From a virus, in IMG/VR virus record IMGVR_UViG_3300025083_000185, positions 1-27,036 of that record: a DNA stretch of 27,036 bases; one strand, given 5' to 3'. The notes under the pieces were generated by a model. That model saw only the letters and a list, made by a program, of their open reading frames with translations. It searched no databases and was not told the origin of the DNA. Shown piece after piece: positions 1,511 through 25,148 of this stretch (the stretch's first letter is position 1; every line of letters begins with the position of its first letter). The position numbers and the translations under genes were made by a program.

Positions 1511-2578
1511 ATGACAAGAGACTTATATAAATTATACAATATACAATCACTAAATAAATACAATAAATATTTCAAGTTTCTATTAGAGGAGGTTTCTGAA
1601 AACAGTATCAATGAGAATCAAATATTACCTGACTATTTAGTTGAAAATTACAATACAGACATTGCTTTATCAAACGACAAAGTAAAAGAACTAGATTCTG
1701 AGTTTGCTTACTCAACACTTTTTACTTCATACAGTAAGTTATTCGATGAAATTAAAAGTACTAAAATAAACTCTCTTTACTATAGAATTGCATGTAATAT
1801 GGAAAAAAACGAAACCATATCTTCGTGCCTCACAACATTTCAGCCAAATAGAGATTCTTTTTGTAAGAAAACATATTACAATCTGGTTAACAACGTATCA
1901 GGAAGACTAACAGTAAAAAGTGGTCCTAGTATATTAACTTTACCTAAGCGACATAGAAAGATATTAGACACTAGATTTGCAAACGGTGATGTTTTAAGTC
2001 TAGACTTTTCTTCACTAGAACCACGACTTTGTTTGTCATTAATTGGAAAACAAATTAAAGGTGATCTTTATGACGAGATTAAAAATGTATTAGGTCTAGA
2101 TGTTGATCGTGTAATTATTAAAAGAGCTATAATATCTGTATTGTATGGCGCACATTATACGTCATTAAAAGGACTAAGTGAATCTCGTGCAAAAGATGTT
2201 TTTCATAGTGTAAAAGAGTTTTTTGAACTAGACAAGTTATTAGAATTTGCAACAAACATTGATGACAATGGATTACGCAAGAACTATTTTGGCCGACCTT
2301 TATGGAATCTTGAAGAGCAAAAAGAAAATATTCTAATAAACAACTACATCCAGTCATCAGCAGTAGATCTGGCATTGAGTTATTTTTCTATGCTAACTGA
2401 TAAATTAGATACTGAAAAGTTTGTTCCAATTTTTGTTTTACACGATGCAATTATATTTGATATTAACAATGATTATAAAGAGGAGTTTTTAAATGTAATC
2501 ACAACAGGTTATACTCATGATAAATTAAGACATTTTCCTCTGGAGTTAGATATATTTAATATTAAAAATCAGGAGTAG
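1511..2578 (+). CDS. Short family A DNA polymerase (polymerase domain only)
   Basis: Template-directed DNA synthesis in phage replication. Family A motifs are visible in order: SGRL (residues 130-133), motif A LSLDFSSLEPRL with catalytic D165 and E170, motif B R200-x3-K204-x7-Y212-G (the position of E. coli F762 is I208), and motif C VLHDAIIFD with H311-D312. The Glu that normally follows the Asp of motif C (HDE) is Ala313. At 355 residues it is far shorter than Pol I or T7 polymerase: there is no 3'-5' exonuclease domain and only about 130 residues before the palm. The start ATG has no clear ribosome binding site. It is followed 3 bases later by the next gene. Family membership is secure; whether it is the main replicase, and where proofreading comes from, cannot be seen here. 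Confidence 0.9.
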   Translation: MTRDLYKLYNIQSLNKYNKYFKFLLEEVSENSINENQILPDYLVENYNTDIALSNDKVKELDSEFAYSTLFTSYSKLFDEIKSTKINSLYYRIACNMEKNETISSCLTTFQPNRDSFCKKTYYNLVNNVSGRLTVKSGPSILTLPKRHRKILDTRFANGDVLSLDFSSLEPRLCLSLIGKQIKGDLYDEIKNVLGLDVDRVIIKRAIISVLYGAHYTSLKGLSESRAKDVFHSVKEFFELDKLLEFATNIDDNGLRKNYFGRPLWNLEEQKENILINNYIQSSAVDLALSYFSMLTDKLDTEKFVPIFVLHDAIIFDINNDYKEEFLNVITTGYTHDKLRHFPLELDIFNIKNQE

Positions 2579-5968: not shown

Positions 5969-6730
5969 ATGGCTAAGGTCAAAAAGAAGAAAAAAGAAGA
6001 ACTAGACGATTTTACAGTTGACCTCATTAAGTCATTAAACAAGGAAAGAGGGACTAGGGTTGCTTATAATTTAAGCACTGATGAGTCCCCTACTCATGTC
6101 AGCAGGTGGATTAGTACAGGATCAAAACAGTTAGATTATATTATTTCAAATCAAAGATCAGGAGGACTTCCAGAAGGTCGTATTGTAGAGATCTTTGGTC
6201 CCCCTTCAATCGGAAAGTCTCATATTGCTACGCAAATTGCTAAGTCTACCCAGAGTATGGGTGGAATTGTAGTCTATATTGACACAGAAAACGCAACTAG
6301 CGTTGAAAACTTGCGTCTGCTAGGTGTAGATATATCTAAGCGATTTGTTTATGTTGATACTCATTGTACTGAAGATGTCTTGTCTATTGCAGAAAGCACA
6401 ATAATTAAAGCAAAAGCAATGGACAAAGATGTACCAGTAACGATTATTTGGGACTCTGTAGCTGCTACTTCACCCAAAGCAGAGCTTAATGGCGACTATG
6501 ATAAAGAGTCAATTGGTTTGCAAGCAAGAGCTATCTCAAAAGGAATGAGAAAGATTAATGGCGTTATTGCAAATGAAAAGGTTTTGTTTGTATGTTTAAA
6601 TCAGATTCGAACAAAGGTCGGCGTGCTATACGGTGACCCTACGTGTGTAGACTTAGATACAGAAATAGAAGTCGAGTTTGATGAAAACTCTATGTTTAAT
6701 AAAGAATACTTTAATAAAAATTTTAAATAA
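5969..6730 (+). CDS. RecA/UvsX-type recombinase, N-terminal part fused to N-terminal split intein
   Basis: ATP-dependent strand-exchange recombinase, first of two polypeptides. Residues 1-225 are RecA: Walker A GPPSIGKS (77-84), catalytic Glu in DTEN (E107), Walker B VTIIWDS (157-163), and the L2-loop start NQIRTKVGVLYGDPT (211-225). At residue 226 the RecA sequence is interrupted by CVDLDTEIEVEF and 16 more residues, ending at a stop codon: a 28-residue N-intein with the class 1 Cys1 and block A pattern. The RecA sequence resumes in the next gene exactly where it stopped, so a functional recombinase needs protein trans-splicing. It is closer to bacterial RecA (NQIR, TTPGG) than to T4 UvsX. 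Start ATG has AAAGGATATAA upstream. Lys-rich N-terminus (residues 3-9). Confidence 0.93.
   Translation: MAKVKKKKKEELDDFTVDLIKSLNKERGTRVAYNLSTDESPTHVSRWISTGSKQLDYIISNQRSGGLPEGRIVEIFGPPSIGKSHIATQIAKSTQSMGGIVVYIDTENATSVENLRLLGVDISKRFVYVDTHCTEDVLSIAESTIIKAKAMDKDVPVTIIWDSVAATSPKAELNGDYDKESIGLQARAISKGMRKINGVIANEKVLFVCLNQIRTKVGVLYGDPTCVDLDTEIEVEFDENSMFNKEYFNKNFK
6644..6727 (+). other. N-terminal half of atypically split intein (28 residues)
   Basis: Starts at Cys (TGT 6644-6646) right after RecA GDPT and ends at the stop codon. CVDLDTEIEVEF is a block A motif. Only about 28 residues lie on this fragment; canonical split inteins (DnaE type) carry about 100 residues here. Short N-fragments of about 25 residues define the 'atypically split' inteins such as AceL-TerL. 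Confidence 0.88.
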
Positions 6731-6741
6731 AAGAGAAGAAC

Positions 6742-7083
6742 TTGAAAATTAAAACAACGTTAAGAAACATTGCAAGCCAGCTAAATATTGATGACTTTGA
6801 AACGCCATGCGAGTACGATCTATCAGACTTAGGTATTAAAATCAATACACCAAGTGGATATAAAGACATGACAAATTTTGTTGTTAAAAATGCTGTCGAT
6901 ACACATTACATTCTACCTTCAGGACTAAAAACAACATCAGTACATAAAACGCTTGTTAACAATGAATGGATTAAGTCAAAAGATAGAAAAGATTCAATCA
7001 AGGTTGACCAACGAATGCAAGTTGTCGACGTTTCTGTTCCTGATGGTGAATGTTATCTTGCAGGTAACGAAGTTAATCACAAT
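6742..7083 (+). other. C-terminal half of atypically split intein (114 residues)
   Basis: Runs from the TTG start to AAT (Asn, 7081-7083); the +1 extein residue is Thr (ACA 7084-7086). Contains block B, F and G motifs; total intein size with the N-half is 142 residues, the size of a mini-intein without endonuclease. Confidence 0.87.
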
Positions 7084-7611
7084 ACAACTCCGGGTGGTAT
7101 GGCAATACCTTTTCACAGTTCAGTCCGTATTAAATTAGGTGCTGGTTCACAAATTCTTAACAAAGACAAGGAGCCAATTGGAATCAACGTTTCAGCAAAG
7201 ACAATTAAGAACAAAGTTTCTGCTCCTTTTAGGAAGTGTGACTTTGAAATCCACTTTGGGATTGGTATTAAAGAGCATGAACAAGTATTCGATTTGTTAA
7301 GGAAACATGGCACAGAAGTTATAGATGGTAATACTATTCAAGTAGGAGGCACAGGTGCCTGGAAAACACTTCATGTCTGGGACAAAGAAGGTGAAGAGAT
7401 TCTTGAAAAGAAGTTTTATAAATCAGAGTTTCAATCAATCATGAAACATCCTGAGTATGGTCCTTACATTGATACTTTACTTGAAAGAGTTATGATTAGA
7501 AAAAATAACACTGATGATCCTGATATTGATCCTGAAAGCTACTCTGAGATTGAGGAAGTTGCAAAACAGGTAATAGATATTCATGAAGAAGCATTCGAAC
7601 ATTTGAGTTAA
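6742..7611 (+). CDS. C-terminal split intein fused to C-terminal part of RecA-type recombinase
   Basis: Second recombinase polypeptide. It opens with a TTG codon 11 bases after the preceding stop and in another frame; AAGAGAAGAA lies just upstream and no in-frame ATG precedes residue 43. Residues 1-114 are the C-intein: TTSVHKT (block B His, about 68), VVDVSVPDGECYLAGNEVNHN (blocks F and G) with penultimate His113 and Asn114. No homing endonuclease domain fits in. From Thr115 the RecA sequence resumes: TTPGGMAIPFHSSVRIKLG (end of L2 and following strand), then the C-terminal region to residue 289. Joining 225 + 175 residues gives a 400-residue RecA, normal for the family. The insertion point, in the DNA-binding L2 loop, is a known favourite for inteins. 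Confidence 0.92.
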   Translation: MKIKTTLRNIASQLNIDDFETPCEYDLSDLGIKINTPSGYKDMTNFVVKNAVDTHYILPSGLKTTSVHKTLVNNEWIKSKDRKDSIKVDQRMQVVDVSVPDGECYLAGNEVNHNTTPGGMAIPFHSSVRIKLGAGSQILNKDKEPIGINVSAKTIKNKVSAPFRKCDFEIHFGIGIKEHEQVFDLLRKHGTEVIDGNTIQVGGTGAWKTLHVWDKEGEEILEKKFYKSEFQSIMKHPEYGPYIDTLLERVMIRKNNTDDPDIDPESYSEIEEVAKQVIDIHEEAFEHLS

Positions 7612-24389: not shown

Positions 24390-25148
24390 ATGCCTAGCGT
24401 AAATTTAAATTGCCAGTCTTGTAATGAAGAATATAAACTTCCACTGTCAAAAGCAAAAAACTCAAAATTTTGCTCTAAAACCTGTAAAGACATTTCAAGT
24501 AAAAAGTATTTAATTAAAAACTGTGAATGTTGCAAAACAGAATTCAAGTCTAAGAGAGGATCTAAATACTGTTCTAGAGAATGCTATCTTAAGGTTAATA
24601 AAAAAGAAAGAGTAAAACTAACCTGTGATTACTGTGGAACCGAGTATTATAAAGCTATTGGCAGAGAAACAACATATTGCAGTAAAGATTGTCAAAACAA
24701 AGCACAGAGTAGTGGCTTACATGAAATACCATCATCAGGAAGGTGTGGATTTAGGTACGATTTACCAAAACAATACTTTTTTAAGTCCTCACTTGAAGCT
24801 GACTATGCTAGATGGTGTGAATCAACCGGGAAGCCGTATGTTTATGAGCATAAAACATTCACAGTAGGCTATGATGGAAGAGACAAACAATACACTCCAG
24901 ACTTTTATCATCCTGATGAAAATAGATATGTAGAGCTAAAAGCAATTAGACGTGATAAAAAGTATAATACAAACCTACTAGCTGCAGATATTTTGAAATC
25001 AAACGGGCTTAACATTGACGTAATGCTAATGCATGAGTTTTATACTAAGATAAAGCAAAGCGGTCACTACTGGTCAATTGACAATATAGAAAACAAGAAC
25101 TACTTAGGCACTAGACATCTAATATATCTCAAGAAAAAAAATGTATAA
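24390..25148 (+). CDS. Zinc-finger PD-(D/E)XK nuclease, probable free-standing homing endonuclease
   Basis: 252 residues. Three consecutive CxxC...CSxxC zinc fingers: C8/C11/C28/C32, C45/C48/C61/C65 and C79/C82/C97/C101. Then a nuclease core of the TnsA / endonuclease I type: SSLEADYARWCE (E136), YTPDFYHP (D171) and RYVELKA (E182, K184), that is D-(x10)-ExK. The C-terminal part continues with YNTNLLAADILK and a Trp-containing end. DNA-binding fingers plus a compact nuclease and its lone position suggest a homing-type or defence-type DNase. It has a very strong Shine-Dalgarno (AAAGGAGGTG) that may be masked in long transcripts, as known for T4 I-TevI. The stop overlaps the next gene by 8 bases. 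Confidence 0.78.
   Translation: MPSVNLNCQSCNEEYKLPLSKAKNSKFCSKTCKDISSKKYLIKNCECCKTEFKSKRGSKYCSRECYLKVNKKERVKLTCDYCGTEYYKAIGRETTYCSKDCQNKAQSSGLHEIPSSGRCGFRYDLPKQYFFKSSLEADYARWCESTGKPYVYEHKTFTVGYDGRDKQYTPDFYHPDENRYVELKAIRRDKKYNTNLLAADILKSNGLNIDVMLMHEFYTKIKQSGHYWSIDNIENKNYLGTRHLIYLKKKNV

What the first reader, a model, noticed from the sequence alone, without database searches (positions are those of the whole stretch)
6644..7083. RecA-type recombinase interrupted by an atypically split trans-splicing intein
Seen: RecA sequence stops at GDPT, continues as a 28-residue block A fragment (CVDLDTEIEVEF...) and hits a stop; 11 bases later, in another frame and from TTG, a 114-residue piece with block B His, and blocks F/G ending VNHN leads into TTPGGMAIPF, the exact continuation of RecA L2. 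Known: inteins broken after about 25 residues are rare (AceL-TerL and relatives, mostly from viral metagenomes), and useful because the N-fragment is so short. Inference: the phage makes recombinase only when both fragments are produced and spliced. Having the two halves adjacent, with no endonuclease gene between, may capture an early step of splitting.
Basis: partly seen in the sequence, partly recalled or inferred. Interest (0 to 1): 0.92.

Follow-up and report, generated by a model that had tools for sequence, protein, structure and literature searches.

The report
Phage RecA joined by split intein
This marine phage encodes its RecA-type recombinase as two separate proteins that should stitch themselves together through a split intein with a very short first half; the arrangement is real and conserved across many uncultured phages, a new example of a known but rare kind of protein splicing.

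Summary
RecA N-extein plus a 28-aa Int-N (6644-6727, TAA) is followed after 11 nt, in another frame, by a TTG-started 114-aa Int-C joined to the RecA C-extein. Removing both gives GDPT-TTPGG, the sequence of intein-free relatives. It is not a frameshift error. A 99.9%-identical contig has the same junction, and 17 further homologous inteins keep a stop and a new start while the reading-frame offset varies (0, 1, 2). A contiguous homologue (L062) is predicted to have the HINT fold; its best structural matches are all inteins, with VidaL first. The split lies after helix alpha-1, the known S2 site. Int-C is under strong purifying selection (dN/dS about 0.03-0.07). So this is an atypically split class 1 intein, predicted to trans-splice; splicing itself is untested. 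New context: in most relatives a group I intron, usually carrying an endonuclease, sits exactly 15 nt downstream of the intein. The window lacks the intron but keeps its 15-nt exon motif. In L045-L049 RecA is cut by two split inteins plus the intron.

The parts
5969..6643 (+). RecA/UvsX-like N-extein (225 aa, Walker A GPPSIGKS, ends ...GVLYGDPT)
   Evidence: Pfam RecA E 6.3e-43; phrog_97 UvsX-like E 1.6e-51
6644..6730 (+). Int-N, 28 aa, begins with Cys1 (block A), stop TAA 6728-6730
   Evidence: homologous Int-N of 17-41 aa in relatives
6731..6741 (+). 11-nt gap; the ribosome-binding site of the Int-C gene is here, weak purine-rich AAAGAGAAG (duplex -2.9 kcal/mol)
   Evidence: relatives have AAGGAG-like sites of -5.3 to -10 and ATG
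6742..7083 (+). Int-C, 114 aa, TTG start; block B TSVH, block F VVDVSV, ends NHN
   Evidence: the TTG aligns with ATG in L023, L045, L050
7084..7098 (+). 15-nt exon TTPGG, ACAACTCCGGGTGGT: starts with +1 Thr; identical to the exon that pairs with the group I intron in intron-bearing relatives
7099..7611 (+). RecA C-extein (170 aa, MAIPFHSSVR...), stop 7609-7611

Best explanation
The locus is a naturally, atypically split class 1 mini-intein inserted in the L2 loop of a phage RecA/UvsX-like recombinase. Two proteins are made from one operon: N-extein-IntN, and IntC-C-extein by re-initiation at TTG 6742 just after the stop. The 28-aa Int-N docks on Int-C and completes the HINT fold. Cys1 starts an N-S acyl shift, the chain moves to Thr+1, the terminal Asn cyclises, and a 400-aa RecA without scar is released (shown: anatomy, conservation, predicted fold; inferred: the chemistry). 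It carries no endonuclease and reached this phage laterally. I infer that such inteins spread with the group I intron and its endonuclease 15 nt downstream in relatives, and that the window allele has lost, or was acquired without, that intron.
For: Exact junctions and empty sites. Split conserved with different frame offsets (L023 0, window and L045 2, L050/L063/L076 1) but always a stop and a new start. Second contig with the same junction. Invariant Cys1, block B His, VD in block F, N-H-N end in 19 sequences; +1 residue Thr in those inspected. AlphaFold2 of contiguous L062 pLDDT 82, pTM 0.79; Foldseek's first rows all inteins or intein-like, VidaL first (E 2.5e-4), and VIA Z up to 13.4. The split falls in the loop after helix 18-27. 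Purifying selection dN/dS about 0.03-0.07 on Int-C. Lateral transfer: intein DNA 93% and 90.5% identical to L045 and L023 while RecA flanks are 73-79%; the closest RecA (L003, about 86.5%) is empty. Intron: RF00028 at 71-79 bits in L031/L034, conserved ends in eight loci.
Against: No splicing assay. Pfam and NCBIfam give no significant intein hit for the window pieces, and sequence search of the PDB gives none. The structure is of the L062 homologue (about 53-55% identity over Int-C), not of the two window fragments. The Int-C start is TTG with a weak ribosome-binding site. Co-spread with the intron is inferred; the intron also occurs without the intein, and two intron-free, intein-free allele types carry the same 15-nt exon.
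Confidence: 0.9

Rival explanations
1. A contiguous mini-intein whose frame was broken by a sequencing or assembly error at 6720-6745.
For: The gap lies in an A/T-rich homopolymer stretch, one contiguous homologue exists (L062), and the two frames differ by a single-base step.
Against: The same junction is in an independent contig that differs at 9 SNPs. Close relatives L023 and L045 keep the TAA, and have ATG plus a better ribosome-binding site at the same place, with different frame offsets; in L023 both halves are in one frame and separated by an in-frame stop.
Confidence: 0.03
2. A decaying intein or pseudogene: the split has killed splicing and the phage relies on RecA fragments or on host RecA.
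For: TTG start and weak ribosome-binding site in the window.
Against: Strong purifying selection on Int-C (dN/dS about 0.03-0.07), all catalytic residues intact, and both exteins intact and open.
Confidence: 0.05
3. Translational frameshifting or read-through joins the two frames, so that the intein is made as one chain.
For: The halves are only 11 nt apart.
Against: The -1 frame has a stop at 6724-6726, just before the N-frame stop, so slippage at TTT AAA ends at once (read). Frame offsets and spacing differ among relatives while start codons are kept.
Confidence: 0.02

Closest known systems
AceL-TerL and GOS-TerL atypically split inteins (and engineered TerL Cat)
   Same: Short Int-N (25 aa in AceL-TerL, 30 in Cat), split after helix alpha-1, the S2 site (PMC13014065); phage-type host genes. 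Cat (6dsl) is a Foldseek match.
   Different: Different host gene (terminase) and insertion site; no detectable sequence match in the PDB sequence searches.
VidaL split intein (PDB 6vgv)
   Same: Best Foldseek match (E 2.5e-4, 13% identity); short Int-N, cysteine-dependent. From memory, not checked: one VidaL intein (UvsX-2) sits in a UvsX gene, which would make the same host family already known.
   Different: VidaL Int-N is 16 aa, split after beta-2, the S1 site (PMC13014065); ours is 28 aa at S2. Whether VidaL UvsX-2 shares this insertion site could not be tested.
PolB16 OarG split intein
   Same: Natural atypical split with a short (15 aa) Int-N (PMC10189870).
   Different: Ser1/cysteine-independent, in a PolB gene; ours uses Cys1 and Thr+1.
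Fractured genes (Dassa et al. 2009, cited through PMC10448857 and PMC3653736; text not held)
   Same: Split inteins in metagenomic phage-type genes; from memory, linked to a Vsr-like endonuclease family between the halves. L109 has that layout, as does the first intein of L045.
   Different: The window has no gene between the halves and carries the atypical short Int-N.

Membership tests
Intein (class 1) | Cys or Ser at position 1 | tested here: met
   Cys1 in the window and all 19 aligned sequences
Intein (class 1) | Block B T/S-x-x-H and blocks F/G ending H-N, followed by Cys/Ser/Thr | tested here: met
   TSVH, VVDVSV, NHN then Thr; His and HN invariant
Intein (class 1) | HINT fold | tested here: met
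   Tested on the contiguous homologue L062: pLDDT 82, top matches all inteins, Z up to 13.4
Intein (class 1) | Precise insertion: removal restores the host protein | tested here: met
   GDPT-TTPGG as in the empty alleles listed
Intein (class 1) | Match to curated intein profiles | tested here: inconclusive
   Window pieces: none; L062: PF14890 E 0.043, TIGR01443 12.9 bits against a 15.6 cut-off
Naturally split intein | Two separate genes, each with its own start and stop, conserved | tested here: met
Naturally split intein | Protein trans-splicing of the two products | not testable with these tools
   Needs co-expression
Atypically split intein | Int-N of about 15-37 aa, split at S1 or S2 | tested here: met
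   28 aa; split maps after helix 18-27 of the model, S2 (definition PMC13014065)
Fractured gene with endonuclease between the halves | Endonuclease gene between Int-N and Int-C genes | tested here: not met
   Only 11 nt between halves in the window; present in L109
Group I intron at 7098/7099 | Intron core present | tested here: not met
   Window RecA runs on without a break at that point and has no Rfam match; only the 15-nt exon motif is kept

The most novel reading that the evidence does not exclude
The intein is half of a compound mobile unit: a split intein that carries no endonuclease and a group I intron with a Vsr-like endonuclease, inserted exactly 15 nt apart in recA, spread together by co-conversion, so that one DNA cut moves both a protein-splicing and an RNA-splicing element. 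The window allele is the unit after loss of the intron. Splitness is ancestral and can be reversed by re-fusion (L062).
Probability: 0.4. Interest if true: 0.78.

Novelty: new member of a known kind. Interest (0 to 1): 0.58.

Why it matters
Atypically split inteins with a chemically synthesisable Int-N are few and useful for protein labelling; this family adds about a dozen distinct natural pairs at one insertion site, with a natural contiguous control (L062). It offers a test of how split inteins arise, persist and possibly re-fuse. RecA is cut in its DNA-binding loop L2, so trans-splicing may gate recombination during infection. The neighbouring group I intron makes co-homing of intein and intron directly testable.

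Tried and rejected
Frameshift or assembly error: rejected from L043 and the relatives. Programmed frameshift or read-through: rejected from the -1 stop at 6724 and the variable offsets. Curated profiles and PDB sequence search: no significant hit, so fold prediction on a native contiguous homologue was used. Isolated phages: no intein match; two RecA hits inspected (LR756508, MZ417324) are intein-free and contiguous. Prokaryote genomes: none. Rfam at the gathering score misses the introns that carry an ORF; recognised by alignment with L031/L034 instead (L063/L064). MAFFT misaligned the short Int-N with full-length sequences, so Int-N was aligned by hand for the tree. Reading the 15-nt exon as a sure scar of intron loss was rejected: two empty allele types carry it too. 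Rooting is by midpoint; root-to-tip variation is larger with the root on L062 (CV 0.51 against 0.23 for the best root), so a contiguous ancestor is disfavoured, not excluded. Papers on VidaL UvsX-2 and the 2009 fractured-genes paper are not held.

Full report
Observation. The RecA N-extein (5969-6643) runs into a 28-aa Int-N (6644-6727, stop 6728-6730). After 11 nt, TTG 6742 opens a second ORF in another frame: 114 aa of Int-C (6742-7083), then TTPGGMAIPF and the rest of RecA to 7611. Pfam RecA covers the outer parts and phrog_97 calls it UvsX-like. Intein-free relatives read GDPT-TTPGG-MAIPF with no insert, so exact removal gives a 400-aa RecA.

Is the split real? Yes. L043 is a separate contig, 99.9% identical over 9,097 bp with 9 SNPs (those in recA synonymous) and with the same junction. 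Close relatives L023 and L045 keep the TAA and have ATG where the window has TTG, with better ribosome-binding sites. Across relatives the offset between the two frames takes all three values, yet a stop and a new start are kept. Int-C evolves under strong purifying selection (WIN-L023 dN 0.019, dS 0.60; WIN-L045 dN 0.023, dS 0.33). Int-N is too short for a useful estimate.

Is it an intein? Profiles alone are inconclusive. L061/L062 encode the same intein as one open 148-aa chain. Its AlphaFold2 model (pLDDT 82) matches inteins: the first 37 Foldseek rows are inteins or intein-like domains, VidaL (6vgv) first, and VIA-align gives Z up to 13.4. Cys1, the block B His, VD of block F and the terminal N-H-N are invariant in 19 sequences. 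The split falls in the loop after helix 18-27, one of the less confident parts of the model: the S2 site described for AceL-TerL and GOS-TerL (PMC13014065). Int-N lengths in the family are 17-41 aa.

Evolution. In the tree of 19 inteins the contiguous L062 groups with five split ones (UFBoot 93) and all other branches are split. With midpoint rooting the parsimonious reading is one re-fusion. Any single tip can be an outgroup in an unrooted tree; rooting on L062 makes rates far more uneven. L109 has a long ORF with similarity to the intron endonuclease between its 17-aa Int-N and its Int-C, and L065 has a 143-aa ORF of unknown kind between the halves. So adjacent halves may follow endonuclease loss, the opposite of an early step.

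Lateral transfer. The window intein is 93% and 90.5% identical in DNA to L045 and L023, while the RecA flanks are only 73-79% identical; the nearest RecA, L003 (about 86.5%), is empty.

Neighbouring elements. In L023, L045-L060 and others an insert of about 1.1 kb, or 322 nt in L031/L034, begins exactly 15 nt after the intein. The short form is a group I intron (RF00028, 71 and 79 bits). The longer forms share its ends and carry an ORF with zinc-finger and Vsr/DUF559 similarity. The exon end GGGUGGU pairs with GCCUCCC in the intron with a terminal U-G; in L101 both sides change together (GGGGGGT with GCCCCC). The window lacks the intron but has the same 15 nt, ACAACTCCGGGTGGT, as intron-bearing loci whose inteins are only 62-93% identical to it. 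None of the 13 empty alleles listed has it; by window codon usage the chance is 0.002. Two other empty allele types do have it (L169/L170 and L171), so it may be a target-type exon rather than a scar. The intron also occurs without the intein.

Three-part RecA. In L045-L049, a further intein with an 18-aa Int-N interrupts RecA upstream. Order: N-extein-IntN1; endonuclease-like ORF; IntC1-TMYGDPT-IntN2; IntC2-TTPGG-intron with endonuclease-like ORF; C-extein. IntC1 matches TIGR01443 above its cut-off (28.9 against 15.6 bits). RecA there would need two protein trans-splicing events and one RNA splicing event around a 7-residue middle extein.

Verdict. The window feature is a new member of the atypically split inteins. 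The family around it is more unusual than the window alone. From memory, and unverified, a VidaL intein in UvsX has been described, which lowers the novelty of the host gene. No splicing has been shown.

Noticed in passing
L045 582-4884 (also L046-L049): RecA broken into four ORFs by two different split inteins and a group I intron; the middle piece is IntC1, 7 extein residues (TMYGDPT) and IntN2.
   Followed up: partly
L062 3881-4324 (L061; same contigs as L004, L005): The only contiguous form of this intein, in one open frame of 148 aa; looks like a re-fusion. Its linker DNA holds GAGGTGAT...ATG out of frame, possibly a relic start site.
   Followed up: partly
L031 3330-3652, L034 3184-3506: Group I intron without an ORF, starting 15 nt after the intein; in L023, L045 and L050-L060 it carries a Vsr/DUF559-like ORF.
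   Followed up: yes
L109 1205-4120: Fractured layout: 17-aa Int-N, an endonuclease-like ORF of up to 357 aa, Int-C, then a short group I intron.
   Followed up: partly
L065 3540-3971 and 4883-5275: A 143-aa ORF of unknown family between an 18-aa Int-N and its Int-C, and a small MTES_1575-like ORF just after recA.
   Followed up: partly
window 7084-7098; L169-L171: The 15-nt exon ACAACTCCGGGTGGT is shared by intron-bearing alleles, the window and two intron-free, intein-free allele types.
   Followed up: partly
window 24390-25148: Probable free-standing endonuclease (phrog_1271 E 8e-14, weak Phage_endo_I) with Cys-rich repeats and the strongest ribosome-binding site of the window starts tested (-12.9).
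   Followed up: no
window 1511-2578: Short DNA polymerase A-like ORF (355 aa) covering mainly the later part of the Pfam model; no ribosome-binding site detected.
   Followed up: no
PHROG profiles phrog_97 and phrog_9666: Both leave a gap in model positions at or near this RecA site, hinting that other phage RecA proteins carry inserts there.
   Followed up: no
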